Positions 9-28,177 of a stretch of 54,188 nucleotides of DNA are shown here, in pieces. The notes under the pieces were generated by a model, which made no database searches, had not been told where the DNA came from, and saw only the letters and a program-made list of their open reading frames with translations. Both the position numbers and the translations under genes were made by a program. The first letter of the stretch is position 1. The number at the start of each line of letters is the position of its first letter. Location of the stretch: assembly GCA_007126035.1 (NCBI GenBank), contig SLCC01000138.1:1-54188 (forward strand), written 5' to 3'. The DNA is from Gemmatimonadota bacterium. Its GTDB lineage: Bacteria; Gemmatimonadota; Gemmatimonadetes; Longimicrobiales; RSA9.

Positions 9-45
9 CTCGGAGTTCTGAGAGAAGACCCCCCAGAATTCCGAG
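9..45. repeat. Imperfect inverted repeat at the window edge
   Basis: CTCGGAGTTCTG (9-20) and CAGAATTCCGAG (34-45) are inverted copies with one mismatch, around a 13-base loop. This could be a hairpin past the end of pilC, but neither strand has a T-run after it, so I do not call it a Rho-independent terminator. The arms resemble the CGGAnyT heptads at 14896 and 23542. Confidence 0.5.
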
Positions 46-14895: not shown

Positions 14896-14930
14896 CGGAC
14901 TTCGGACCTCGGACTTCGGGCTTCGGTTCA
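14896..14930 (+). repeat. Heptad tandem repeat, consensus CGGAnyT
   Basis: Five consecutive 7-base units read CGGACTT, CGGACCT, CGGACTT, CGGGCTT and CGGTTCA. They fill part of the gap before the dapF-like gene and run into the stop codon of the preceding fusion gene. A second array of the same heptad, on the other strand, lies at 23542-23562. Confidence 0.6.
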
Positions 14931-16832
14931 TCGGGTCCGCGGCCATGCCAGTTCCGGCTCCCGTCGCTCCTTCAGCTTCAGCCCTTCGAAGACCTGGAGT
15001 GCCAGCTCGACGCGACCGAAGGGTGCGCTCACCTGGAGCCCCTGGACCTGTGGCTGCACGGCGTGGAAGAGTTCCCTGGCGATGGCGACGCCCTCGGCCA
15101 GGGCGTGCTCCTGGCTCCGGGCCTGTGCCACCTGCATGCGACGGATGACATGGTCGGGCACCGTCACTCCCGGGACCTCGTTCGCCAGGAACTCGGCGTT
15201 CCGTACGCTGACCAGCGGCCATATCCCGGCCACGATGGGGATTCGGATGTCTCGGCGCTCGAGCTCGGCGATGAAGCGCAGCAGCTGGTCCGCGTCGAAG
15301 ACCGGCTGTGTGATGGCGTATTCGGCCCCCGCGTCCACCTTCCAGTAGAACCGGTTCAGCTCGTAGTCCGTGTCCATGGCGCCGGGGTTCACGCCGACGC
15401 CGACGGTGAAGCTTGTGGCGCTGCCGATGGCGTTACCGCCGGGGTCCAGCCCGTGGTTCAGCCGGTTCACCAGGTTGGTGAGGCCGATGGAGTCGATGTC
15501 GAAGACGGCGGTGGCATCCGGGTACGGCCCCATCTTCGGCGGGTCACCGGTGATGAGGAGGAGGTTGCGGAGGCCCAGGGCGTGGGCGCCCAGGAGGTCG
15601 CTGAGCATGCCCAGCAGGTTCCGGTCCCGGCATGTGTAGTGGACGACGGCTTCGATGCCGGCGACCCTCTGGACGAGTACGCTGGTGGCGATGACGCCCA
15701 TTCGCATCTGGGCCCGGGGGCCATCGGGCACGTTCACGGCGTCGACTCCCGCCCGCTCCAGCTCCATGACGCCCTGGATCATGCGCTCCGGGTCCACACC
15801 CTTCGGTGGCAGGATCTCGACACTGGTGAGCAGCTCACCGGCGGCGAGCCTGCTGCCCAGCGCGGACCGCTCCGCCAGCGGGACGGGAGGCAGCGCGCCG
15901 TCCTGCTCCGCCACCCGCCGCACCCGGATCCGCCCCGGCGGCGCGGGGCGGGCTGGAGCCACAGCCTGCAACACGTCGCTCATCCTCCGGACGTGGGCGG
16001 GCGTGGTGCCGCAACAACCGCCCACGAGTCGGGCCCCGGCCTGGATCAGCCGCCTGGTGTACTTGGCCAGGTACTCGGGCGAGGCCATGTAGATCTTCCG
16101 GCCGTCGATCTCCCGGGGCAGCCCGGCGTTGGGCTGGGCCGAGACCGGCCGATCTACCGCCGGCGCCAGCCGCTCCACGCCCGCCAGGATCCCGTGGGGC
16201 CCCACGGAGCAGTTGAGCCCCACCACGTCCGCGCCCCACTCGGCCAGCCGCTGCCCGCACAGCTCCACCGTGGTCCCGTACAGCGTGGTCCCGTCCTCCC
16301 GCACCGTCATCTGGGCGACAATGGGCAGGTCCGTCGCCTGGCGCACCGCCGCCAGCGCCTGGCGCACCTCGGCCAGGTCGGCGAACGTCTCCAGCACGAA
16401 GAACCCGACGCCGCCCTCCAGCAGACCGTGCACCTGCTCCAGGAAGAAGGACCTGGCCTCGTCCAGAGACGTGGGGCCGTACGGCTCGATCCGGATGCCC
16501 AGCGGCCCGACAGCTCCACCCACCAGCGCCCGACCGCCCGCGGCCTCGCGCGCCAGCCCGGCGGCCCGGGCGTTGATCTCCACCACCCGCTTCTCCAGCC
16601 CGTGCCGCGCCAGCTTCACCGGGTTGGCGCCGAAGGTGTTCGTCTCCAGCAGTTCCGCCCCCGCCTGCACATACTCGGAATGGATGGACCGCACCAGATC
16701 CGGATTCGACAGCACCAGCTCGTCGTAGCTCCGGTTGATGAACACGCCCCGGTCGTAGAGCATGGTGCCCATGCCGCCATCGAAGAGGTGGGGCCGGTCG
16801 TCGTCCAGGAGATCGAGTAGGTCTGTGGTCAT
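14928..16832 (-). CDS. Homocysteine S-methyltransferase / methylenetetrahydrofolate reductase fusion
   Basis: This 634-aa bifunctional protein resembles the B. subtilis YitJ type. Residues 1 to about 300 are a homocysteine methyltransferase domain with DGGMGTMLYDRG at the N terminus and zinc-ligand cysteines in GLNCSVGP and VGGCCGTTPAH. Residues from about 345 are a methylenetetrahydrofolate reductase TIM barrel. It begins SVEILPPKGVDPERMI and contains AVVHYTCRDRNLLGM and FDIDSIGLTNLV. The reductase makes 5-methyl-THF, the methyl donor for MetH encoded 6 bases upstream. The methyltransferase half may use S-methylmethionine or another donor. Co-transcription with metH is very likely. Confidence 0.92.
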   Translation of the reverse strand: MTTDLLDLLDDDRPHLFDGGMGTMLYDRGVFINRSYDELVLSNPDLVRSIHSEYVQAGAELLETNTFGANPVKLARHGLEKRVVEINARAAGLAREAAGGRALVGGAVGPLGIRIEPYGPTSLDEARSFFLEQVHGLLEGGVGFFVLETFADLAEVRQALAAVRQATDLPIVAQMTVREDGTTLYGTTVELCGQRLAEWGADVVGLNCSVGPHGILAGVERLAPAVDRPVSAQPNAGLPREIDGRKIYMASPEYLAKYTRRLIQAGARLVGGCCGTTPAHVRRMSDVLQAVAPARPAPPGRIRVRRVAEQDGALPPVPLAERSALGSRLAAGELLTSVEILPPKGVDPERMIQGVMELERAGVDAVNVPDGPRAQMRMGVIATSVLVQRVAGIEAVVHYTCRDRNLLGMLSDLLGAHALGLRNLLLITGDPPKMGPYPDATAVFDIDSIGLTNLVNRLNHGLDPGGNAIGSATSFTVGVGVNPGAMDTDYELNRFYWKVDAGAEYAITQPVFDADQLLRFIAELERRDIRIPIVAGIWPLVSVRNAEFLANEVPGVTVPDHVIRRMQVAQARSQEHALAEGVAIARELFHAVQPQVQGLQVSAPFGRVELALQVFEGLKLKERREPELAWPRTR

Positions 16833-16838
16833 GCTGGA

Positions 16839-19800
16839 TCACACCGCGCTGAAGTACTTGGCATCCGGGTGGTGGAAGACGATGGCGGCGGTGGACAGCT
16901 CCGGGACGAGAGCGCCCGCGCTGGTCAGGTCCATGCCCAGCCGCTCGCGGGCCGGGAGCAGGCGATAGACGACCTCGTGCTGCATATGGTCGGGGCACGC
17001 GGGGTAGCCCCACGCGTACCGCAGCCCTCGCCCGTGCTCGATGCCCCACTCCCGGCGCATCCGCCGGTGGACCCATTCGGCGGCGGCCTCGGCCAGTCGC
17101 ACGCCGAAGCCGTGGAGGTAGTAGCCCTCGGAGTATTCGCCCTCCTTCATCATGGCCGTGGAGCGCTCGAGCAGCCGGTCCGACACGGAGACGACGAGGA
17201 AGCCCACGTAGTCGACGGTCGAGCCGCGCAGGTAGTCGGCCAGGCAGAGCCGCTCCCGGTCGCTCTGTCTCGGGAAGCTGAGCCGCTCCACCTCGAGGGC
17301 CGGGTCTCCGGGGTCGCCGACGACGACGTGATCGCCGTCGCCCACCGCCGGCCAGAACCCGTAGGCGGCGCGGACTCTGACCTGTCCGCCGGCCAGGGCC
17401 TCCCGTTTCAGCCGCTCCAGGCGGGGCTCGAATTCGTTCCGGACCAGCCGCTCCCAGGCCTGGCCGCTGGCGTTCTTCGCGCCCCAGTGGAGCCGGTAGA
17501 GCGTGTTCAGGTCCACCAGGTCGTAGAGCTCGGCCAGCGGCACCCGGTCGATGACCCGGGAGCCCAGGAAGTCCGGTACGGGGACGTCCACCTGCCGGCG
17601 GCGACCCGGTCGCTCCGCGGGACGCGCGGCCTTAGCCCGATCCTGGAGGGCGGCGCGTCTGGCCACGCCCTCCCCCACTTCTTCCAGGCGACGTCGTACG
17701 AAGGCCTCCCGGTCAGGCCCCAGCAGCGCGTCCACGACGGCCAGGCCCGCGAACGCGTCCTTGCAGTACCATACGCCGGGCTCGTAGAGGGCGGTCCGCT
17801 GGTCGTCGACGAAGGACGCGGCCCGGACGAACGACGGGTTGATGGCGGCCCCGCCACACAGGACCGGGTAGCGCAGGCCTCGCCGGTCCAGCTCCCGCAC
17901 CGCTGCGGGCATCTGCTTCGAGGTGGAGACGAGCAGGGCGCTGAGCCCGATGGCGTCGGCTCCCACCTCCTGGGCCCTGGCGATGATGTCGTTGACCGGG
18001 ACCTGCTTTCCCAGGTCGTGCACGGTGTAGCCGTTGTTCTCCAGGATGGTGTGGACCAGGTTCTTGCCGATGTCGTGGACGTCGCCATATACCGTGGCCA
18101 GGACCACCGTCCCCTTGGACTGGCCCTCCGCCTTCTCCAGGTACGTCTCCATACGGCCCACCGCCGCCTTCATGACCTCGGCGGACTGGAGCACGAACGG
18201 CAGGATCAGGTCGCCGGCGCCGAACCTGTCGCCCACCTCCTTCATGGCGGGGAGCAAGACGGTGTTCAGGAACCGGACGCCCGCCTCGTGGCTCGCGGGG
18301 GTGGGCGACGGCGCGACGGCGAAGGCGCGGGCCTCGGCGCTGGCGGGGCCAGAGCCTGCGCTGGCACTTTCCGCCTCGCCCTGGATCCCCCGGGCAATGG
18401 CCTGGTCCACCAGCTCCACCACGCCTTCCTTCTTCCGGTGGAGGATGCTCCAGCGGATGGCGTCATCGGGATCCATCTCCAGGCGAGGGTCGCCACTCTC
18501 CGATTCCTCGACCTGGTGCTCCTCGAAGTAGGCGATGAAGCGGGCCAAAGCGTCGTCGCGGCGGTCGAAGATCAGGTCGTCGGCCAGCTGGCGCTGCGCC
18601 TCGTCCACCTCGGCGTAGGGCGTGATGTGGGCCGGGTTCACGATGGCCATGTCGAGACCCGCCTCCACGCAGTGGTGGAGGAAGACGGAGTTGAGCGCGG
18701 CCCGGGCTGGGGGCTGGAGCCCGAAGCGGACGTTGCTCACGCCCAGGCTGGTCAGGACGCCGGGCAGCTCGGCCTTGATGCGTCGGATGCCGTCGATGGT
18801 CTCCACGGCGCTGGCCCGGAACTCGGCATCGCCGGTGGCCAGGGTAAAGGTGAGGTCGTCGAAGACCAGGTCTCCGGGTGACATGCCGTACTCGCCCACC
18901 ACTATGTCATGGATCCGCCCCGCCACCTCCAGCTTGCGCTCGGCGGTCCTGGCCATGCCCGCCTCGTCGATGGTGAGGGCGATGAGCGCGGCGCCGTGCT
19001 CCATGGCCATGGGCACCACACGGTCGACCCGGTCCCGGCCCGACTCCAGGTGGATCGAGTTGATGATGGCCCGGCCAGGGTACTGGCGGAGCGCCGCCTC
19101 CACCACGTCCGTCTCCGTGGTGTCGATGACCAGCGGCGTCTCGACGCTCTGGGCCAGCAGCTTGACCAGCGTCCGCATCTGCCGGGCTTCGTCCTGCCGC
19201 TCCGTGAGGGCCACGCAGACGTCCAGCAGGTGCGCGCCGCCGTCCACCTGGTGGCGGGCCACGTCGCGGACGGCCTCGTAGTCGTCGGCCAGGAGCATGC
19301 GCTTGACCGCCTTCGAGCCCTGGGCGTTCACCCGCTCGCCGATGAGGGTGGGCGCGGGGACCTGTTGCATGTCCACGGCGGTCATGGCGCTGGCCAGCCG
19401 TGGCACGGCGGTCACGGCTCGCCCCTTCGGTCTCCTGCCCTCGACACGCCGCACCACCGCGGCCATGTGCTCCGGCGTGGTCCCGCAGCAGCCGCCCACG
19501 ATGCTCACGCCCAGCTCGACGACGAACCACTCGTGGGCCTCGGCCAGGGCCTCGGGCTCGAGGGGGTAGACAGCCACGCCGGCCTCGTTGTGGGGGATGC
19601 CGGCGTTCGGGATGACGCTGATGGGTAGCCGGCAGTTCTCCGCCAGCCAGCGCACCGGCTCCCGCATGTGCTCCGGTCCCGTGGAGCAGTTCAGGCCGAC
19701 GACATCCACACGGAGGGCCTCGAGCACCGTGGCCGCTGCGGCGATGTCGGTACCCAGCAGCATCCGGCCGCTGGTGTCCAGCGTGACCTGGACCTGGAGG

Positions 19801-20381
19801 CCGACGTCGCTCCGTCCCGCGTCGGCCAGCGCCCTCCGGCACCCGGTGACCTGGGCCTTCACCTCCAGCATGTCCTGGCTGGTCTCGACCAGCAGTACGT
19901 CCACGCCGCCCTCGAGGAGGCCGCCGGCCTGCTCGGCGAAGATGTCCACCAGCGCCTCGTAGGTCATGGCGCCCAGCGACGGGTCGGACGTGCTGGGAAG
20001 GAAGCCGCTGGGCCCGATGCTGCCCGCCACGAAGCGGGGGCGGTCCGGCGTCGCGTAGTCAGCGCACGCGCTCCGCGCCACCAGCGCCGCGGCACGGTTG
20101 ATCTCCACGACCCGGTCCCCGAGGCCGTACTCGCCCAGGGTCAGCCGGTTCGAGCGGAACGTGTTCGTCTCCACCACGTCGCAGCCCACGTCCAGGAACG
20201 AGCCGTGGATCTGCCGGATCAGGTCGGGCCTGGTGATGACCAGGTGGTCGTTGCAGCCGTCCAGCCCGGGCCCGCCGAAATCTTCCGCGGTCAGAGGCCG
20301 GGTCTGGATGCTCGTGCCCATGGCCCCGTCGTAGACCAGGACCCGCCGGGCCAGCTCCTCGAGATACGTAGACTGTTTCAT
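16839..20381 (-). CDS. metH: Cobalamin-dependent methionine synthase MetH
   Basis: This 1180-aa four-module enzyme transfers the methyl group of 5-methyl-THF to homocysteine via cob(I)alamin. In order: a homocysteine-binding domain (VYDGAMGTSIQ at the N terminus; zinc cysteines in GLNCSTGPEH and IVGGCCGTTPEH); a pterin-binding domain (LIGERVNAQGSKAVKRML); a cobalamin domain with the lower-ligand motif GDVHDIGKNLV; and a C-terminal AdoMet reactivation domain with YAWGYPACPDHM. I start at the ATG at 20381 (MKQSTYLEEL). The open frame runs 64 codons further upstream, but that stretch crosses a Rho-independent terminator and looks non-coding. The gene has a long structured leader, described separately. 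Confidence 0.95.
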   Translation of the reverse strand: MKQSTYLEELARRVLVYDGAMGTSIQTRPLTAEDFGGPGLDGCNDHLVITRPDLIRQIHGSFLDVGCDVVETNTFRSNRLTLGEYGLGDRVVEINRAAALVARSACADYATPDRPRFVAGSIGPSGFLPSTSDPSLGAMTYEALVDIFAEQAGGLLEGGVDVLLVETSQDMLEVKAQVTGCRRALADAGRSDVGLQVQVTLDTSGRMLLGTDIAAAATVLEALRVDVVGLNCSTGPEHMREPVRWLAENCRLPISVIPNAGIPHNEAGVAVYPLEPEALAEAHEWFVVELGVSIVGGCCGTTPEHMAAVVRRVEGRRPKGRAVTAVPRLASAMTAVDMQQVPAPTLIGERVNAQGSKAVKRMLLADDYEAVRDVARHQVDGGAHLLDVCVALTERQDEARQMRTLVKLLAQSVETPLVIDTTETDVVEAALRQYPGRAIINSIHLESGRDRVDRVVPMAMEHGAALIALTIDEAGMARTAERKLEVAGRIHDIVVGEYGMSPGDLVFDDLTFTLATGDAEFRASAVETIDGIRRIKAELPGVLTSLGVSNVRFGLQPPARAALNSVFLHHCVEAGLDMAIVNPAHITPYAEVDEAQRQLADDLIFDRRDDALARFIAYFEEHQVEESESGDPRLEMDPDDAIRWSILHRKKEGVVELVDQAIARGIQGEAESASAGSGPASAEARAFAVAPSPTPASHEAGVRFLNTVLLPAMKEVGDRFGAGDLILPFVLQSAEVMKAAVGRMETYLEKAEGQSKGTVVLATVYGDVHDIGKNLVHTILENNGYTVHDLGKQVPVNDIIARAQEVGADAIGLSALLVSTSKQMPAAVRELDRRGLRYPVLCGGAAINPSFVRAASFVDDQRTALYEPGVWYCKDAFAGLAVVDALLGPDREAFVRRRLEEVGEGVARRAALQDRAKAARPAERPGRRRQVDVPVPDFLGSRVIDRVPLAELYDLVDLNTLYRLHWGAKNASGQAWERLVRNEFEPRLERLKREALAGGQVRVRAAYGFWPAVGDGDHVVVGDPGDPALEVERLSFPRQSDRERLCLADYLRGSTVDYVGFLVVSVSDRLLERSTAMMKEGEYSEGYYLHGFGVRLAEAAAEWVHRRMRREWGIEHGRGLRYAWGYPACPDHMQHEVVYRLLPARERLGMDLTSAGALVPELSTAAIVFHHPDAKYFSAV

Positions 20382-20595
20382 GTCACGAGCGTTGAGCGTG
20401 AGCAGGGGCTCTGACCGACCGGGGTGGGAACAGAAAAAAGCCCCGCGACGGAAGTGCGGGGCGATCGGATGCTGCGACCAGTTGTCCCGGCACTTTAGAC
20501 CTTTGTTTCGGCAGCTCCGACCAGGCGACATCGCCTGACCTCCCTGCCCCGCGGTGCCAAGCGGCCAACACAAATGCGTCCGCGGGTCCTGCTGC
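20382..20595 (-). ncRNA. metH 5' leader: putative riboswitch or attenuator, class unknown
   Basis: The leader can form nested stems on the minus strand: 554-558 with 489-493 (GGCAC/GUGCC), 544-548 with 510-514 (GGCAG/CUGCC), and a perfect hairpin 532-537/522-527 (CAGGCG-like stem, loop AUGU); numbers are offsets from 20000. A 16-base unpaired strand, GAAACAAAGGUCUAAA, lies between two of the 3' arms. The segment 20546-20552 reads GCGGGGC in the RNA. It is identical to the 3' arm of the downstream terminator, so it can pair perfectly with the terminator's 5' arm. It also overlaps the second stem. The two folds are therefore mutually exclusive, as in an OFF switch. I do not see the GGCAACC core of SAM-I, the cobalamin GCCACUG box, or the SAH-riboswitch core. 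Confidence 0.5.
20434..20462 (-). terminator. Rho-independent terminator in the metH leader
   Basis: On the minus strand GCCCCGC, a 9-base loop and GCGGGGC form a 7-bp all-GC stem followed at once by six T residues. It lies 52 bases before the metH start codon, between promoter and gene, so it must act as an attenuator rather than a gene-end terminator. Confidence 0.85.
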
Positions 20596-20601
20596 TACCG
20601 A

Positions 20602-20631
20602 AGGCTAGTCGATCCGCAGGGGCCCTGTCAA
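20602..20631 (-). promoter_or_regulatory. Candidate metH promoter
   Basis: A perfect -35 TTGACA (20626-20631) is followed after 18 bases by a weak -10, TAGCCT (20602-20607). It would start a leader of about 210 bases ending at metH, which fits the attenuator described above. Confidence 0.4.
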
Positions 20632-20789
20632 CCTCCGTAGGGCTTTTCCCCGCTCCAAGAGCCGGGGGCCGTGTACGCCTGAGGCTGAGTCGCGTCACAA
20701 ACATTGCCCGATGGCAGTGGTGGTCCCCACCCGGTATCCTGCGAGCGCCGGCGCCGTCGCCCGCTGAGTCGGGCCGGAAGTGCCGGTAA

Positions 20790-20870
20790 GGCTGTGTTGT
20801 CGGGAGTTGTTGGCACGATACGGGACGGTTGCATGCCGCATCGGGTCCAACACTTCCCGCTAACACAGCC
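20790..20870. mobile_element. 81-bp MITE-like palindromic element
   Basis: Two 24-base arms, 20790-20813 (GGCTGTGTTGTCGGGAG...) and 20847-20870, are inverted copies matching at 20 of 24 positions around a 33-base centre. The left arm (20791-20813) matches 20 of 23 bases of 53975-53997, the probable end of an insertion sequence. This suggests a non-autonomous miniature element mobilised by that transposase. Flanking 8-mers do not form a clear target duplication. It lies 51 bases before the barrel gene and may carry its promoter or form a hairpin in its leader. Confidence 0.5.
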
Positions 20871-20921
20871 CCGGCGGTCGTGACAGAGCAACCAGCACAT
20901 CCTTCGATCAAGGAATGAGCC

Positions 20922-22103
20922 ATGATATCGCGTAGGTTAGTTCGTTTCGTCCTGGCAGGCCTGTGTGTGATGGCGGTGGGGGCCGCCGACGTCGCCGGCC
21001 AGGTGACGTTTGCCGGCGACGCCCGGTTCAGGCCTCGCCTCGACCTGGACGACCGCACGGGCGATCCGGCTGCCGGCTTCAACATGACCCGGGTCTACTA
21101 CCAGTACCGGCTGCGGCTGGACATGACCGGCGCCATCGGCGACGGCTACTACGTCCGCTCCCGGCTGGCCCACAACGGGATCGCCTTCTACTCCCGGGGC
21201 GGGCGCGGCGAGCTGCCGGACGTGATGGGGTCTCCGTTGAACACCATCTCCGAGCCCATGGCCTCGCGTAACAGCGTGGACTTCATGTACATGTACATAG
21301 GCCGCTCGACCCCGACCTTCGGGTTCGACATGGGCCTCATCCCGATCCCGGGCTTCAGCAACCCGCTCTGGGACCTGCACTACTACCCGAACCTTATGAT
21401 CGACGTCCCCTACTTCATCTGGAACACTGATGGCGGGTTCGGCGGTCACATGTTCGCCGACGTGGGCCCGGGCCGGCTGACGCTGTACGCGCTCCTGGAC
21501 CGGGCGCTGTCGGAGCATCGGGAGGACCCGGACGGCGTGACGACCCGTGACCACGACGACCAGCACACGCTGGTGGCCAGCTACTCGCTGCCCCTGGGGC
21601 CCGTGACGGTCATGCCCATGGTCATGAAGGCCTTTGCCGGCAGCCTGGACGAGCGGCCTGGCGGTGTCACGGACCCGGCGGCGTCGGGGACCTTCAACGC
21701 GCCCCTGACCGTGGGCGGCCAGCTCACCCTCCCGCCGCTGGGGCCGCTCACGCCCACGCTGTTCGGCGGGTTCACCCGCAGCACCCAGGACGGCAGCATC
21801 GATGCGCCCACTCCGGCCTACGACGGCTGGCTCGCCAGGGCCCGGCTCACGGGCAAGGTAGGGCCGGGCCACGTGCTGGTCTGGGCTGACCTGGCGCAGA
21901 GGACGGACAAGCCCGCGGCCGCGGAAGACGTCACCACCGACTTCTTCCACGTCTGGCTCAACTACCGCATCCCGGTCTACGAGAGCGACCGCGGACACTT
22001 CTCCATCGGTCCGGAGTGGCGGATCATAAATATCGCACGGGACGACGCCACCCTGCGCCGACGTCACAAGATCGAGATCAACTTCGACGTCGCCTTCCGC
22101 TGA
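20922..22103 (+). CDS. Predicted outer-membrane beta-barrel protein (porin-like)
   Basis: This 393-aa protein is of unrecognised family. It has an N-terminal signal peptide (MISRRLVRFVLAGLCVMAVG, cleavage probably after DVAGQ). The rest alternates polar and hydrophobic residues and is rich in Tyr, Phe and Gly, as in outer-membrane barrels, for example RVYYQYRLRLDMTG and VDFMYMYIGRSTPTFGFDMG. The last strand is KIEINFDVAFR. A well-spaced AAGGA precedes the ATG. It stands alone on the plus strand between metH and the dipeptidase, converging on the latter. A porin or phosphate-selective-porin-like role is a guess; substrate is unknown. Confidence 0.7.
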   Translation: MISRRLVRFVLAGLCVMAVGAADVAGQVTFAGDARFRPRLDLDDRTGDPAAGFNMTRVYYQYRLRLDMTGAIGDGYYVRSRLAHNGIAFYSRGGRGELPDVMGSPLNTISEPMASRNSVDFMYMYIGRSTPTFGFDMGLIPIPGFSNPLWDLHYYPNLMIDVPYFIWNTDGGFGGHMFADVGPGRLTLYALLDRALSEHREDPDGVTTRDHDDQHTLVASYSLPLGPVTVMPMVMKAFAGSLDERPGGVTDPAASGTFNAPLTVGGQLTLPPLGPLTPTLFGGFTRSTQDGSIDAPTPAYDGWLARARLTGKVGPGHVLVWADLAQRTDKPAAAEDVTTDFFHVWLNYRIPVYESDRGHFSIGPEWRIINIARDDATLRRRHKIEINFDVAFR

Positions 22104-22130: not shown

Positions 22131-23408
22131 TCACCGCGCCGCCGTGGCCAGCCGCTCGTTCTCGCGCCAGACTCGCATCAGGTTGCCGCCCCAGAGCTGC
22201 TCGATCTCCGACTCGGAGTAGCCGCGGCGCACCAGCTCCAGCGTGACGTTCAACGTCTCCGCCGCGTTCTCCCAGCCCACCACGCCGCCACCGCCGTCGA
22301 AGTCTGAGCTGATCCCCACGTGGTCGATCCCGATCAGGTCCACGGCGTAGTCGATGTGGTCGACCAGGTCGCTCACCGAGCCGCCGGGCCACCGCTCGTC
22401 GATCTCGGCGGCCCGGCGCCTGTACTCCGACCGCTCCTCGTCGGTCAACCGCTGCCAGTCGGCATAGCCGACGATCCCCACCTCGGCCCGCAGCGCGTCC
22501 AGAGCAGCCACCTTCTCCGGCTCGGGCAGCCGGACGAAGGCGCCGAGCCCCACCACCTGCACCACACCACCGCCCGCGGCGATGGCGCGGAGCTGGTCGT
22601 CGCCCAGGTTCCGGGGAATCGGGACGACGCCCTGGACAGCGGAGTGCGACGCGATGACGGGTGACTGCGACACCCGGACCGCGTCCAGCACCGCGGCACC
22701 GGAGATGTGGGACACGTCCACCATCATCCCCAGTCGGTTCATCTCCCGGACCACCTCTTCGCCGAACGGGCTCAGCCCGCCGTGCTCGGACTCGGGCTCG
22801 CCGGACCGGGGGTTGGCCGAATCGGAGATCTCATTGTGGCCGTTGTGGGAGAGGGTGAGATACCGAGCGCCCAGGTCGTGATACTGGCGCAGCAGGGACA
22901 GGTCGCGGCCCACCATGTAACCGTTCTCCATCCCGATGACCGCGACCCGCTTTCCTGCGGCGTTGATGCGCGCCACGTCGTCGGTGCTGTAGGCGATCTC
23001 GATGGCATCCGGGCAGAGCTCCTCGGCCATGCGGCGGATGGCGGTGAATCGCTCCAGCGCGGTGGCCTTGGCCGCGGCATGTCCCTCCGGCGTCCGCTCG
23101 CCCTGGCCCACGTAGACTATGAAGAAGGCCACGTCCATGCCGCCATCCACCATCTTCGGCACATCCACCTGCCAGTCGGTGGGGCCGCACGGATCGACTT
23201 CCACCACGAAGCGCCGTGAGATATCGACGTGCGTGTCCACGATCAGGACACTGTCGTGGATCCGCCGCGCCTCCGCCTGGAGCCCGGCGTCGTCCGTGTA
23301 TGTAGTAGTGGCTCCCGCCGATCCTTCCGGAACGTCGGCGGCGCAGGCGCCCGCGGTGACCAGGAGCGCCATCACGAGCACGATCTTGAACCTACGTATG
23401 TCGAACAT
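22131..23408 (-). CDS. M19 family membrane dipeptidase, lipoprotein
   Basis: This 425-aa protein belongs to the renal-dipeptidase family, whose members hydrolyse dipeptides with a binuclear zinc centre. The metal-ligand motifs are present: VDTHVD (first His-x-Asp), LTLSHNGHN, MVDVSHISG, VIASHSAV, and GIDHVGISSDFDG near the C terminus. The N terminus (IVLVMALLVTAGACAADV) is a lipoprotein-type signal with a plausible though non-ideal lipobox ending at Cys. I start at the ATG at 23408; 68 in-frame codons upstream run into a repeat-bearing intergenic region and are not protein-like. Likely periplasmic or outer-membrane anchored, in peptide or peptidoglycan-fragment turnover. Confidence 0.9.
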   Translation of the reverse strand: MFDIRRFKIVLVMALLVTAGACAADVPEGSAGATTTYTDDAGLQAEARRIHDSVLIVDTHVDISRRFVVEVDPCGPTDWQVDVPKMVDGGMDVAFFIVYVGQGERTPEGHAAAKATALERFTAIRRMAEELCPDAIEIAYSTDDVARINAAGKRVAVIGMENGYMVGRDLSLLRQYHDLGARYLTLSHNGHNEISDSANPRSGEPESEHGGLSPFGEEVVREMNRLGMMVDVSHISGAAVLDAVRVSQSPVIASHSAVQGVVPIPRNLGDDQLRAIAAGGGVVQVVGLGAFVRLPEPEKVAALDALRAEVGIVGYADWQRLTDEERSEYRRRAAEIDERWPGGSVSDLVDHIDYAVDLIGIDHVGISSDFDGGGGVVGWENAAETLNVTLELVRRGYSESEIEQLWGGNLMRVWRENERLATAAR

Positions 23409-23541
23409 CCGTTGTAATCCTCGAGCAGCTCGGGTCAGCGGGCGGGGGCTAAGGGTCTGACAAGCTGGGGCGGCGAGGCCGGCTGGGCAATGGGCTTCGG
23501 CGGGATGCCGGGCGACGGCGGGTGGTGGGCGCTCGACTCGA

Positions 23542-23562
23542 ACTCCGAGCTCCGAGCTCCGA
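23542..23562 (-). repeat. Heptad tandem repeat, second array
   Basis: Three perfect-phase heptads read ACTCCGA, GCTCCGA and GCTCCGA on the plus strand (CGGAGCT-type on the minus). They are preceded by a 6-base partial unit. They lie in the 228-base gap between the dipeptidase start and the RND gene end. The rest of that gap is GC-rich and I see no gene in it. Confidence 0.55.
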
Positions 23563-23636
23563 CCGCCCCACCACCACCCGGCCGCCGGTTGCCGGGCTTC
23601 GGCAGATCCCATCGGACAAGATCGTCCCCGGCGCTG

Positions 23637-26600
23637 TCAAGCAGAGCGCCGCGCCTCCGTCCGGGCGGGTACGGCCGCGGGCTCCGCTTCTTCCTCTCTG
23701 CCTTCATCGGCGTCGACGGCCGGCCGGTAGTGCCTGACCAGCCACTGCTCTATGTCGTCCACCAGGGAGTACATGACCGGCACCAGGACCAGGGTGAGCA
23801 CCGTGGCGAAAGTCAGGCCTGAGATCACCACGATGGCCATGGGCCCCCACCACGCCGCCTGCTCGCCGCCCCAGTAGAAGTCGGGGCTCAGGGCGGTGAA
23901 GAGCCCGAAGAAGTTGAAGTTCAGGCCGATGGCCAGCGGGATCAGGCCGAAGACGGTGGTGACGGCAGTCAGGACCACGGGTCGGAACCTGGTCACCCCG
24001 GCCCGGACCAGGGCTTCGCTGCGGCTGAGCCCGTCTCGCTCCCGGAGGAGGTCCACGTAGTCGATGAGGACGATGGCGTTGTTCACCACCACGCCGGCCA
24101 GGCTGATGATGCCGACGCCGGTCATGATGATGCCGAAGGGCAGCCCGAAGACCATGAGGCCGAGGAGCACGCCCACGGTGGACATGATGACGGACGTCAG
24201 GATGATGAGGGGCTTCACCACCGAGTTGAACTGGCTGATCAGGATGAATCCGATGAGGAGCAGGGCTATGAGGAAGGCCGTCCCCAGGAACGCCTGGGCC
24301 TCCTGCTGATCTTCCTGCTCGCCGGTGAAGCGCATGGTGTAGCCTGGCGGCAGCTCGGCGTCGAAGCCGCCGGCCGTCAGCGTCTGCTGGACCTGGCGGA
24401 GCACGGCGTTGCTGTTGGCCCCGGCCACCACGTCGCTGCTCACCGTGGCCACCCGCTCCAGGTTCTTACGGCGCACGCTGCCGGCGCCCTCATCGACGTA
24501 CCAGTCGGCCACGGCGGTCAGCGGGACCTGGACGCCCAGGTCCGTCATGACCATCAGCTCCTGGAGTGCGTCGAGCTCCTGGCGGTACGTCTCCGCCAGG
24601 CGCACCACAATGTCGTACTCGTCCTCGCCCTGCCGGAACTTGCCGGCCTCGGCGCCCTGGATCGCGCTCCGGATCGTCCCGCCGATGGCCCTGGTGCTGA
24701 GCCCGTAGAGCGCGGCCTTCTCCCGGTCCACGTCGATGACCAGCTCCTGGCGGCCATCGCTCATGTCGCTGTCCAGCCCCTCCAGGAGGCGACCTACTGG
24801 CGACGCTTGCAGGATCATCTTGGCCCGGTCCGCCAGCCGCTTCAGCACGTCCGGGTCGTCACCGGCTATCTCCAGGTTCACCGGCGACCCGGTGGGCGGC
24901 CCCATCTCGTCCCGGGCCAGGCTGAACTGGGCGCCCGCCAGGCCCTGGCCGACCCGCTCCTGCATCTCGGCCATGGTGGCGAAGACGTCGTAGCGCCGGT
25001 CCTTGTAGTCCACGAACTGGACTGCCACGCTGGCGTCGGCACCGCCCATGAACAGGCGAGTGATGGCGTCGCCCGAGGAGCCTACGGTGGCCACCACTGA
25101 CCGGGCGTCCACCATGCCCCTCAGCTCGGCCAGCTGGGCCTCGACCTGCTCCGCCAGCCGGTTCACCACCTCCGGCCGGGTCCCGCTGGGCGCGTCGATC
25201 TGGACCATGACCTGGGACGGCGGGATGGAGCCGGGGAAGAATTCGATTCCCCGGTTGAAGACCAGGAACACGAAAACGGTGGCGACGAAGACGCCCGCGG
25301 CGGCGCCCATGATGATCAGACGATGACTCAGCGCCCAGCGGAGACGCCGCTCGTAACGGGACAGCATGAACGGTACGGCCGCCGACTGGAAACTGCGGGC
25401 CAGCCGGACCAGGACGAACCGGTGCAGCGCCACCAGGGCAGCCACCAGGACCACCAGCAGCACCGCGGACAGGAGGTTGATTCCGGCCACCACCAGGACG
25501 AACAGGGCACCGGCGCCCATGAGCGTCCGCCGGGCCGCGGGCGTCAGCGGCGAGGACGGCGCGCCGTCCAGCTTCATGAACAGGGCGCAGAGCACCGGCA
25601 CCATGACCAGCGCCACGAACAGGGAGCTGGACAGCGTGATGATGAGGGTCAGCGGCAGGTAGCCCATGAACTCGCCGGCGATACCCGGCCAGAACAGGAG
25701 CGGCGCGAAGGCCGCCAGGGTGGTGAGGGTGGAGGCGATGATGGGCATGGCCACCTCGCCCGTCGCCAGCCGGGCCGCCGTCCAGTTGTCGTGGCCCTCC
25801 TCCAGGTATCGGTAGATGTTCTCCACCACCACGATGGCGTTGTCCACCAGCATCCCCAGCGCCAGGATCAGGGAGAACAGGACCACCATGTTCATGGTTA
25901 TGCCCATGGCCCCCATGACAATGAAGCTCAGGAGCATGGACAGGGGGATGGACGTGGCCACGAAGCCGGCGTTCCGCACGCCCAGGAAGAACAGGAGCAC
26001 GGCCAGCACCAGGATCAGCCCGCTGATAATGCTGTTCTCCAGCGTGCTGACTATCTGCTCGATGAACTCCGACTGGTCGCCGGTGATCTTGACCACGGTC
26101 TCCGCCGGGAACCCGGGCTCCATGACGGCGATCACCTCCTTCACTGATGCCGCCGTCTCGATGATGTTGTCGCCCGCACGCTTCACCACGTCCAGCGTCA
26201 CCACCGGGTCGCCGTCGAGCCGGGCAAACGTGGTGCGGTCCCTGTACGCGAAGTCCACCGTGGCCACGTCCCCGACGTAGATGGGCCGGCCGTTCCGCGT
26301 GGTGATGACGAAGTCCCGGATGGGCTCCGCCGCCACCAGCTCTCCGGCCACACGCAGGGCGTACTCCTGGGTGCCCACGTCCACCACGCCGCCGGGGATG
26401 GTCACGTTCTCGTTGCGGATCGCGTCCACCACGTCGTTGAAGTCGACGCGGTAGAAGGTGAGCATGGGCAGGTCCACGTCCACCCGGACCTCCCGCTCGA
26501 GACCGCCCGACAGGTTCACCGACAGCACGGACGGGATCTGCTCGAGCCGGTCACGGAGGTCGTCCGCCACGTCCTTCAACCGCTCCAGGCCGTAGGGCCC

Positions 26601-27068
26601 CGAGACGTTCACCTGCATGATGGGGAAGTCGGAGAGGTTGAACTCGGAGATGGTGGGCTCGTCCGCGTCCGCCGGCAGCTTGGACTTGGCCAGGTCAACC
26701 TTCTCACGGACCTTCTGGAGGGCCGCGTCCATGTCCATCCGGTTGTCGAACTCGGCCATGACGTTCGTGTAGCCCTCGACGGACGTGGACGTCAGCTCCC
26801 GGATCTCCGGGATCGAGTTCAGCTCCTCCTCCAAAGGCCGCGCCACCAGCGTCTCCATGTCACGCGGCGCCACGCCAGGGTACACCACGCTCACGGAGAT
26901 GATGGGGATCGTCACCTCCGGCGACGCCTCCTTCGGCACGCTCAGGTAGCTGGCTACGCCCAGGATCGCCGTGACGGCGATCAGCATCAGGATGCTGGTC
27001 CGATGCTTGAGCGCGAAGTTGGTCAGCCAGAACTGGCGCTGCTCCACCGGCTTCTGCTCGCCGATCAT
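23637..27068 (-). CDS. RND efflux transporter, inner-membrane pump subunit
   Basis: This 1143-aa proton-driven pump is of the AcrB/MexB/CusA superfamily. TM1 follows WLTNFALKHRTSILMLIAVT. The porter-domain text EASPEVTIPIISVSVVYPGV and the TM4 motif MLVDNAIVVVENIYRYLEEG (with the proton-relay Asp) are clear. The second half repeats the fold (GVVVNNAIVLIDYVDLLRER). The length is slightly above AcrB because of a hydrophobic insert near residues 520-570. The ATG overlaps the adaptor stop (ATGA), and an in-frame extension upstream is the adaptor gene in another frame. It is the last gene of the tetR-tolC-adaptor-pump operon. Substrates probably include hydrophobic drugs or lipids; this is not shown by the sequence. 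Confidence 0.93.
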   Translation of the reverse strand: MIGEQKPVEQRQFWLTNFALKHRTSILMLIAVTAILGVASYLSVPKEASPEVTIPIISVSVVYPGVAPRDMETLVARPLEEELNSIPEIRELTSTSVEGYTNVMAEFDNRMDMDAALQKVREKVDLAKSKLPADADEPTISEFNLSDFPIMQVNVSGPYGLERLKDVADDLRDRLEQIPSVLSVNLSGGLEREVRVDVDLPMLTFYRVDFNDVVDAIRNENVTIPGGVVDVGTQEYALRVAGELVAAEPIRDFVITTRNGRPIYVGDVATVDFAYRDRTTFARLDGDPVVTLDVVKRAGDNIIETAASVKEVIAVMEPGFPAETVVKITGDQSEFIEQIVSTLENSIISGLILVLAVLLFFLGVRNAGFVATSIPLSMLLSFIVMGAMGITMNMVVLFSLILALGMLVDNAIVVVENIYRYLEEGHDNWTAARLATGEVAMPIIASTLTTLAAFAPLLFWPGIAGEFMGYLPLTLIITLSSSLFVALVMVPVLCALFMKLDGAPSSPLTPAARRTLMGAGALFVLVVAGINLLSAVLLVVLVAALVALHRFVLVRLARSFQSAAVPFMLSRYERRLRWALSHRLIIMGAAAGVFVATVFVFLVFNRGIEFFPGSIPPSQVMVQIDAPSGTRPEVVNRLAEQVEAQLAELRGMVDARSVVATVGSSGDAITRLFMGGADASVAVQFVDYKDRRYDVFATMAEMQERVGQGLAGAQFSLARDEMGPPTGSPVNLEIAGDDPDVLKRLADRAKMILQASPVGRLLEGLDSDMSDGRQELVIDVDREKAALYGLSTRAIGGTIRSAIQGAEAGKFRQGEDEYDIVVRLAETYRQELDALQELMVMTDLGVQVPLTAVADWYVDEGAGSVRRKNLERVATVSSDVVAGANSNAVLRQVQQTLTAGGFDAELPPGYTMRFTGEQEDQQEAQAFLGTAFLIALLLIGFILISQFNSVVKPLIILTSVIMSTVGVLLGLMVFGLPFGIIMTGVGIISLAGVVVNNAIVLIDYVDLLRERDGLSRSEALVRAGVTRFRPVVLTAVTTVFGLIPLAIGLNFNFFGLFTALSPDFYWGGEQAAWWGPMAIVVISGLTFATVLTLVLVPVMYSLVDDIEQWLVRHYRPAVDADEGREEEAEPAAVPARTEARRSA

Positions 27069-28177
27069 CCGTCGACCACCTCCTGCGCCGGGCGGCCCGC
27101 CGGCGCCGGACCGTTCGTGATGACCAGCACGTCGCCATGGACCACCCGCTGCTGACCCACGACGACGATCCGTTCGCCCGCTTCCAGCCCCTGCAGGATG
27201 ACCACCTCGTCGCCACGGGCGATCCCCGGCTCGACCCACCGGGCCTCGGCGCGCCAGCCGTCAGCGTGGGGAACCGCCACGTAGATCGCGTAGCCGCTCT
27301 CCCTGCGGAGCATGGCGTGGCGAGGGACCACCAGCGCCGCGTCCAGTCGCTCCCGCGCGATCCGCACGTTGGCGACCATCCCGGGCTTGAGCGGGAGCCC
27401 CGCATTGGGCACCTCCACCTCCACGGTGAAGCTCCGACTGGACGGGTCCACCGCCGCGCTCACATAGCCGACCCGGCCAACGAACTCACGGCCGGCGGCC
27501 CGGTCCAGCGTCACCGTCACCTCGTCGCCCGCGACGACGTCGCCCGCGTAACGCTCCGGTACGCCGGCCACGATCTTCACCGTGTCCACGTCCAGGATCC
27601 GGGCCACCGGCGAGCCCGGTGAGACCATGGCCCCCACATCCACCATCCGCTCCTCCAGGATGCCGGCGATGGGGGCACGGATGACCGTCCGCTCCACCCG
27701 CTCAGCCAGCACCCGGGCCTGGGCCCGGGCGGTGCGGGCGTTGTACTTGGCCTGGAGGTAGGCCATCTCCGTGCCCACCCGCTCCTCCTCCCACAGGACA
27801 CGCTGCCGCTCCCACGTCTCCTCCGCCAGCTCGGCCTGGCTCACCGCCTGCTCGAGCTGCGCGCGCAGGACCCCCGCGTCCAGCCGCACCAGCGGCTGGC
27901 CCGGGCGGACACGCTGGCCCTGCCGGACCAGGACCTCCCGGACAGTGCCACCTTCCTCCGCCGAGATGACCACGTCGCGATCGGCCTCCACGGTGCCCAC
28001 CACCCGGACCACGTGGGCAAAGTCCCGGGGCTCCACCTCCGCCACCTCGACGTTGATGCTGCGAACCCGCTCCTCCGCCCGCGCCCCGCCCTCCGAGGCA
28101 CCGGCACTACCGCAACCAACCACCAGGACACCGGCCGTCAGCGCCCCCACCGCCCCCGTTACCGCTCTGGAAATCAT
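27065..28177 (-). CDS. RND efflux periplasmic adaptor (membrane fusion) lipoprotein
   Basis: This 370-aa HlyD/AcrA-type adaptor links the inner-membrane pump to TolC. It has a lipoprotein signal with lipobox VLVVGC near residue 22, a barrel-sandwich first half (VISAEEGGTVREVLVRQGQR), and a short helical hairpin (about residues 105-160). The lipoyl second half follows (TVIRAPIAGILEERMVDVGA), then beta-barrel and membrane-proximal domains. The short hairpin is typical of adaptors for AcrB/CusA-type pumps. Start and stop both overlap their neighbours by four bases. Confidence 0.92.
   Translation of the reverse strand: MISRAVTGAVGALTAGVLVVGCGSAGASEGGARAEERVRSINVEVAEVEPRDFAHVVRVVGTVEADRDVVISAEEGGTVREVLVRQGQRVRPGQPLVRLDAGVLRAQLEQAVSQAELAEETWERQRVLWEEERVGTEMAYLQAKYNARTARAQARVLAERVERTVIRAPIAGILEERMVDVGAMVSPGSPVARILDVDTVKIVAGVPERYAGDVVAGDEVTVTLDRAAGREFVGRVGYVSAAVDPSSRSFTVEVEVPNAGLPLKPGMVANVRIARERLDAALVVPRHAMLRRESGYAIYVAVPHADGWRAEARWVEPGIARGDEVVILQGLEAGERIVVVGQQRVVHGDVLVITNGPAPAGRPAQEVVDG

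What the first reader, a model, noticed from the sequence alone, without database searches (positions are those of the whole stretch)
20382..20631. metH leader with mutually exclusive terminator and antiterminator: possible unassigned riboswitch
A TTGACA promoter, about 130 bases of nested stems and a 7-bp all-GC terminator with six U precede metH. The RNA segment from 20552 to 20546 (GCGGGGC) is identical to the terminator 3' arm. It can therefore pair perfectly with the terminator 5' arm, while also overlapping an upstream stem (GGCAG/CUGCC). Stabilising that stem would free the terminator, which is an OFF switch. The core boxes of SAM-I, cobalamin and SAH riboswitches are not visible. A new sensor of SAM, SAH, B12 or methyl-folate in this phylum is plausible.
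Basis: partly seen in the sequence, partly recalled or inferred. Interest (0 to 1): 0.66.

Follow-up and report, generated by a model that had tools for sequence, protein, structure and literature searches.

The report
Hidden SAM-II riboswitch controlling metH
The stretch in front of this bacterium's methionine-synthase gene is very probably a known type of RNA sensor for the methyl donor S-adenosylmethionine, hidden from standard searches because it carries an extra RNA hairpin that many relatives share.

Summary
The metH leader is a SAM-II riboswitch with an extra hairpin (P3) directly after the 3' strand of P1. Rfam misses it: no match in the window or in any of 26 P3-type loci tested. Similar P3-less metH leaders of the same order do match Rfam SAM-II (RF01726, 45.0 and 45.4 bits, cut-off 44). 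A covariance model of 21 P3-less leaders finds this element as its only match in the whole genome (E 7.6e-4). The P3 form occurs in 31 of 394 genomes sampled from the class, before metH, metY and once aspartate kinase, in Gemmatimonadota. P1 and P3 covary. Predicted function: SAM locks P2a, frees the terminator and turns the metH operon off. P3 lies where SAM-V riboswitches have theirs, so the RNA combines SAM-II and SAM-V traits. New variant of a known kind; SAM binding is untested.

The parts
20602..20631 (-). promoter: TTGACA (20631-20626), 18-base spacer, TAGCCT (20607-20602)
   Evidence: sequence; TTGAC-16..20-TANNNT upstream of the aptamer in 24 of 52 leaders vs 0.04% of shuffles
20580..20585 (-). 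P1 5' strand (CCGCGG)
   Evidence: pairs with 20554-20549; P1 97.1% paired, 3 of 6 pairs change on both sides in 29 P3-type RNAs
20572..20576 (-). L1 third strand CAUUU (position 8, A9, U10-U12 of SAM-II numbering); position 8 is C here instead of G
   Evidence: alignment; swap counted; numbering from PMC3764141
20564..20566 (-). P2a 5' strand (GGC)
   Evidence: pairs with GCC 20491-20489; 85 of 87 cells paired in P3-type, 69 of 69 in P3-less rows, GGC/GCC to GAC/GUC
20556..20560 (-). P2b 5' strand UUGGC (U20, U21, G22, then G23 and C24)
   Evidence: U20, U21, G22 invariant in alignment A3 (rows were selected with TTG in the pattern); G23 is rare
20549..20554 (-). P1 3' strand (CCGCGG)
20510..20548 (-). 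P3 accessory hairpin, abutting P1: GGCAG/CUGCC (20548-20544/20514-20510) plus inner hairpin 20540-20519
   Evidence: hairpin of >=3 bp in 29 of 29, >=5 bp in 27 of 29 P3-type RNAs; all 7 counted P3 pairs change on both sides
20502..20509 (-). A-rich L3 strand (GAAACAAA)
   Evidence: conserved in alignments
20494..20500 (-). P2b 3' strand and pocket GGU-C43-U44-A45-A46-A47... (20500-20494: GUCUAAA)
   Evidence: CUAAA in all 31 P3-type RNAs; selected for by my pattern except in L118
20485..20495 (-). aptamer 3' end AAGUGCCGGGA: holds the P2a 3' strand (20491-20489) and is the antiterminator strand
   Evidence: 9 bp with one mismatch to 20461-20452, -16.3 kcal/mol as a hairpin vs -15.4 for the terminator; conserved complementarity
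20440..20462 (-). intrinsic terminator hairpin
   Evidence: a terminator found in 51 of 52 leaders
20434..20439 (-). U6 tract of the terminator
   Evidence: sequence
16839..20381 (-). metH, B12-dependent methionine synthase, 1180 aa
   Evidence: NCBIfam TIGR02082 1016 bits over the cut-off 1010.85
14928..16832 (-). probable second gene of the operon: bifunctional homocysteine S-methyltransferase/methylenetetrahydrofolate reductase, 6 bases after metH
   Evidence: NCBIfam NF006396 713 bits over the cut-off 453; coordinates

Best explanation
It is a SAM-II riboswitch with an extra hairpin (P3) inserted between the P1 3' strand and the A-rich L3 strand, followed by a transcription terminator. When S-adenosylmethionine is scarce, the aptamer's 3' end (AAGUGC-C-GGG) pairs with the terminator's 5' arm and loop (CCC-C-GCACUU), and transcription runs on into metH and the downstream homocysteine methyltransferase/MTHFR gene. 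When SAM is plentiful it binds the L1-P2b triplex, which holds the same 3' strand in the P2a pseudoknot, so the terminator forms and the operon is off. Shown here: homology to SAM-II, covarying P1 and P3, P2a pairing, conserved mutually exclusive pairing, gene context. Inferred: that SAM is the ligand, and the direction and size of regulation.
For: P3-less metH leaders of the same order match Rfam SAM-II over its cut-off (L013 45.0, L015 45.4 bits, cut-off 44). Model R2, built from 21 P3-less Gemmatimonadota leaders, finds the window element as its only match in 54 kb (E 1.1e-5) and in the 3.9 Mb genome (E 7.6e-4). It also finds the right place in 30 of 30 P3-type loci (25 at E<=0.01) and in 8 of 8 loci chosen from the RF00521 search, all over its cut-off. 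P1, P2a and P3 counts: 91.2% paired, 10 of 16 pairs with changes on both sides, 0 of 500 shuffles as good. The pocket nucleotides U10-U12, U20, U21, G22, C43, U44, A45-A47 listed for SAM-II in PMC3764141 (passages) are all present in the window. Aptamer 3' end to terminator 5' half: median about -13 kcal/mol, p<=0.05 in 34 of 51 (13 of 23 P3-less, 21 of 28 P3-type), with changes in step (GAGUCGGG with CCCCGCACUC in f3, GUGUCGGG with CCCCGCACAC in L070). Genes: of 31 P3-type loci, 19 metH, 8 metY and one aspartate kinase, three undetermined. A promoter just upstream of P1 and a terminator after P2 is the layout described for SAM-II (PMC1273637, passages).
Against: The window sequence has no Rfam SAM-II match even at E<=5, and 0 of 26 P3-type loci had one at E<=1. 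In the window, position 23 is G (not C), 42 is U (not G) and 8 is C (not G), so the G8-C23-G42 triple of SAM-II is altered; the C8/G23 swap is shared with only one other RNA (L002). 18 of 29 P3-type rows carry an extra nucleotide next to C43-U44. 17 of 51 leaders did not pass p<=0.05 for the conserved antiterminator. The pocket conservation was partly selected for by my search pattern (ATTT, TTG, CTAAA); of 31 P3-type model hits, only L118 departs from it (GTTTT). No binding or expression data.
Confidence: 0.9

Rival explanations
1. A variant of the SAM-II fold whose pocket has changed ligand (for example SAH or another methionine-cycle compound).
For: Extra nucleotide beside C43-U44 in 18 of 29 P3-type rows, and C8/G23 in place of G8/C23 in the window and L002.
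Against: The uridines that contact the sulfonium (U11, U21), U44 and A47 (PMC3764141) are present; genes are the usual SAM-II targets; P3-type RNAs without the extra nucleotide exist in the same family (L062, L063) with the same layout.
Confidence: 0.06
2. A SAM-V riboswitch rather than SAM-II.
For: P3 after the P1 3' strand, followed by adenines and then the P2 3' strand, is the SAM-V layout (PMC6061858, Results part 1 read).
Against: SAM-V is described as translational with a 2-bp P2a that includes the Shine-Dalgarno (PMC6061858 passages); here a G-C P2a of 3 bp or more leads into a terminator; Rfam, which should hold SAM-V (recalled), gave no SAM-V match at E<=1; P3-less siblings are SAM-II.
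Confidence: 0.03
3. One reading: a new, unassigned sensor with the antiterminator at 20552-20546.
For: Perfect 7-bp complementarity in the window, -18.0 kcal/mol.
Against: Homology to SAM-II; the pairing is absent in P3-less relatives (median -2.0 kcal/mol) and no better than shuffles in 26 of 28 P3-type leaders.
Confidence: 0.01

Closest known systems
SAM-II riboswitch (Rfam RF00521 SAM_alpha and RF01726 SAM-II long loops)
   Same: P1, L1 uridines, P2a/P2b pseudoknot, CUAAA strand, A-rich L3, promoter just before P1, terminator after P2, methionine genes
   Different: extra P3 hairpin: 25-55 nt instead of 13-15 nt between the P1 ACC and CUAAA; often one extra nucleotide beside C43; below Rfam detection
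SAM-V riboswitch
   Same: a P3 stem-loop right after the P1 3' strand followed by adenines (PMC6061858)
   Different: SAM-V P3 is 3 bp, P2a 2 bp, translational control (PMC6061858); here P3 is mostly >=5 bp, with a G-C P2a and a terminator

Membership tests
SAM-II riboswitch | P1 hairpin plus P2 pseudoknot supported by covariation | tested here: met
   P1. P2a does not vary within the P3 form but changes GGC/GCC to GAC/GUC in 15 of 23 P3-less rows
SAM-II riboswitch | pocket nucleotides U10-U12, U20, U21, G22, C43, U44, A45-A47 | tested here: met
   present in the window; list from PMC3764141; conservation in relatives partly selected by my pattern
SAM-II riboswitch | C23-G42 pair with G8 (base triple) | tested here: not met
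   window has C8, G23, U42; G8/C23 in 25 of 29 P3-type rows. PMC3764141 lists C23 and G42 as completely conserved, though not this triple among its fully conserved triples
SAM-II riboswitch | score over the Rfam cut-off | tested here: not met
   window none; P3-less relatives L013, L015 over the RF01726 cut-off
SAM-II riboswitch | recognised by a model of P3-less SAM-II | tested here: met
SAM-II riboswitch | methionine-pathway gene and terminator downstream | tested here: met
SAM-II riboswitch | binds SAM and rejects SAH | not testable with these tools
   needs in-line probing or calorimetry
SAM-V riboswitch | P3 stem-loop between the P1 3' strand and the P2 3' strand | tested here: met
   definition
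SAM-V riboswitch | short P2a covering the Shine-Dalgarno, translational control | tested here: not met
   P2a 3' strand ends 107 bases before the metH ATG, with a terminator in between
SAM-I, cobalamin, SAH riboswitches | Rfam model match | tested here: not met
   no match at E<=5 in 20200-20900; SAM-I found in 1 of 12 family genomes, in G010, not in the window's genome

The most novel reading that the evidence does not exclude
The P3-type RNAs are a distinct subclass that joins SAM-II and SAM-V into one lineage, and in its metH branch (above all the window and L002, with the C8/G23 swap and the extra nucleotide beside U44) the pocket has been retuned to a different affinity or ligand such as SAH.
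Probability: 0.1. Interest if true: 0.75.

Novelty: new variant of a known kind. Interest (0 to 1): 0.45.

Why it matters
It shows that SAM-II control of methionine synthesis reaches further into Gemmatimonadota than Rfam reports, gives a covariance model for a hidden form, and supplies natural RNAs that combine the SAM-II P2a/terminator design with the SAM-V P3 position. That makes the kinship of SAM-II and SAM-V testable. PMC6061858 states that P3 is absent in SAM-II (passage). In the listings of searches, and in the passages I read, I found no description of such a hairpin in SAM-II; searches found no held paper combining Gemmatimonad- with SAM-II riboswitch or SAM riboswitch. Most subscription papers are not held.

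Tried and rejected
Direct Rfam scans of window and leader: no useful match. Global folding z-scores: uninformative. The first MAFFT alignment with f3 rows (A1) split their P1 3' strand at the gap and was not used for counts. In A5 the eight RF00521-type rows had P1 out of register, so R2 was built without them from 21 rows (A6). In A3 four rows are gapped at column 8 of P1, L062 and L063 are one column out in P3, and L120 is shifted in L1; they were kept and lower the counts. The collection-wide pattern scan gave 17 loci, 16 from Gemmatimonadota records; the 17th (L098, Ignatzschineria) did not pass the P1 pairing test and is taken as chance. Rows for the counts are those that fit my pattern, pair in P1 and have 120 bases after CTAAA, identical ones counted once: 29 P3-type and 23 P3-less. 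L083 and L118 are further P3-type model hits that were left out of those counts, making 31. L062 ends before its gene can be named, L083's downstream gene was not identified and L118's was not looked at. Terminators were placed by a script; for L008, L078 and L084 the boundary is doubtful, and L085 had none by its rule.

Full report
What is there. metH is a full B12-dependent methionine synthase, followed after 6 bases by a homocysteine methyltransferase/MTHFR fusion, so the leader probably serves both genes. Rfam finds nothing in the window, and the leader folds no better than its shuffles.

Relatives. A search of the own genome and 60 related genomes with the leader DNA hit the region just upstream of metH in nine other genomes of the same family and two of a sister family. 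The alignment shows a compact conserved core, GGCGG-A-NNG-AUUU...GGCCGCUUGC-UACCGCC, then a variable hairpin, then CGAAACAAA...CUAAAGUGCCGGGA. The two sister-family (f3) leaders, L013 and L015, lack the hairpin, and Rfam recognises them as SAM-II: RF01726 45.0 and 45.4 bits over a cut-off of 44; RF00521 35.1 and 34.5 bits against a cut-off of 36. The ten window-family leaders in the same call have no match at E<=1, nor do 16 further hairpin-bearing loci to any SAM family.

Homology test. Model R2 was built only from 21 hairpin-less leaders. In the window it has one match, 20589-20483, E 1.1e-5, with the hairpin as an insertion, and the same single match in the whole 3.9 Mb genome, E 7.6e-4. 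It matches 30 of 30 hairpin-bearing loci at the place found by model R1, 25 of them at E<=0.01, and 8 of 8 loci that score over the RF00521 cut-off. The window's own genome shows no other SAM-II-like element by RF00521, RF01726, R1 or R2.

Distribution. R1 matches 32 of 154 genomes of the order, 51 of 394 sampled from the class and 41 of 395 sampled from the phylum at a stricter cut-off. All 12 genomes of the window's family carry one copy. Sorting the class hits by insert length gives 31 genomes with the hairpin and 20 without. The two forms do not grade into each other: insert lengths are 13-15 nt in 23 rows and 25-55 nt in 29 rows. A pattern scan of about 85,000 named species genomes gave 17 loci, 16 in Gemmatimonadota records, among them Candidatus Kutchimonas denitrificans and a Longimicrobiales genome; 15 of the 17 are identical to loci already held. 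The window is therefore placed in Gemmatimonadota. The pattern was fitted to this form, so absence elsewhere is not shown.

Genes. Of 31 hairpin-bearing loci, 19 precede metH, 8 precede metY (O-acetylhomoserine aminocarboxypropyltransferase) and one an aspartate kinase; for three the gene was not determined (L062, L083, L118). Hairpin-less SAM-II elements precede metH in f3, and a homocysteine methyltransferase/MTHFR gene in f9. In a MetH tree of 31 rows the 18 hairpin-bearing and the 13 hairpin-less leaders are separated by one branch with full support: one gain or loss, root unknown.

Structure. On a MAFFT alignment of 29 hairpin-bearing RNAs (A3) the structure P1 + P2a + P3 pairs in 91.2% of cells, 10 of 16 pairs change on both sides, and none of 500 shuffles reaches any of the five measures; sliding the partners by one to three columns gives 31-54% paired. 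P3 forms a hairpin of at least 3 bp in 29 of 29, at least 5 bp in 27. P2a (GGC/GCC) hardly varies within the hairpin form (2 of 29 lose one pair) but reads GAC/GUC in 15 of 23 hairpin-less rows. In 18 of 29 rows one extra nucleotide precedes C43; treating it as a bulge lets position 24 covary (C-G, U-A, G-C). In the window and in L002, C8 and G23 replace G8 and C23, and in the window G23 can pair with U42.

Mechanism. A terminator was found in 51 of 52 leaders. The aptamer's 3' end is complementary to the terminator's 5' arm and loop: in the window A20495-C20490 and G20488-G20486 pair with U20452-G20457 and C20459-C20461. The antiterminator hairpin (-16.3 kcal/mol) and the terminator (-15.4) are nearly balanced. 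Across leaders this pairing beats composition-matched shuffles at p<=0.05 in 34 of 51. Terminator loops follow aptamer changes: GAGUCGGG with CCCCGCACUC, GUGUCGGG with CCCCGCACAC. Because the strand 20491-20489 is needed by both P2a and the antiterminator, ligand-stabilised P2a frees the terminator. SAM-II is described as using its distal pseudoknot to reach the expression platform and as often followed by terminators (PMC2258182 and PMC1273637, passages); a S. meliloti metZ SAM-II riboswitch is predicted to work by termination (PMC9373788, passages).

Relation to known classes. SAM-V has a P3 stem-loop directly after the P1 3' strand, then adenines in the P1 minor groove, then the P2 strand (PMC6061858, first part of Results read). 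The same paper says P3 is absent in SAM-II, that SAM-II has a longer P2a, and that the two cores superimpose. The Gemmatimonadota form has both the SAM-V P3 position and the SAM-II P2a and terminator. I file it as SAM-II on homology, with the reservations that the window fails the Rfam cut-off and departs at positions 8, 23 and 42.

Literature seen. Passages only: PMC1273637, PMC2258182, PMC2864571, PMC3764141, PMC5352136, PMC9373788, PMC9481103, PMC11508383. PMC6061858: passages, outline and Results part 1. Other papers appear only as search listings.

Noticed in passing
L031-L041 (canonical SAM-II loci of relatives): Genomes of the same order also carry ordinary SAM-II elements over the RF00521 cut-off; the downstream ORF starts, read by eye, suggest metY, homoserine dehydrogenase and threonine-synthase-like genes, so some genomes use both forms.
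   Followed up: partly
L060 (f2 genome G099): Its MetH groups inside the window's family f1 in the MetH tree, suggesting transfer of the switch-gene unit or a taxonomic boundary effect.
   Followed up: no
L122 (G010) and L041 (G010): One of 12 family genomes has a SAM-I riboswitch (70.6 bits) besides SAM-II; PMC2258182 had found no species with both in 2007.
   Followed up: no
20382-20573 (-): The leader is open in frame with metH from a TTG at 20573 (1244 aa ORF): an automatic gene caller could start metH inside the riboswitch.
   Followed up: partly
20780-20877: A long imperfect inverted repeat upstream of the promoter gives weak microRNA-model matches on both strands; it lies between metH and a divergent ORF at 20922 with no Pfam match.
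   Followed up: no
22131-27239 (-): Membrane dipeptidase (Peptidase_M19) and an AcrB-type RND transporter next to the metH region.
   Followed up: no
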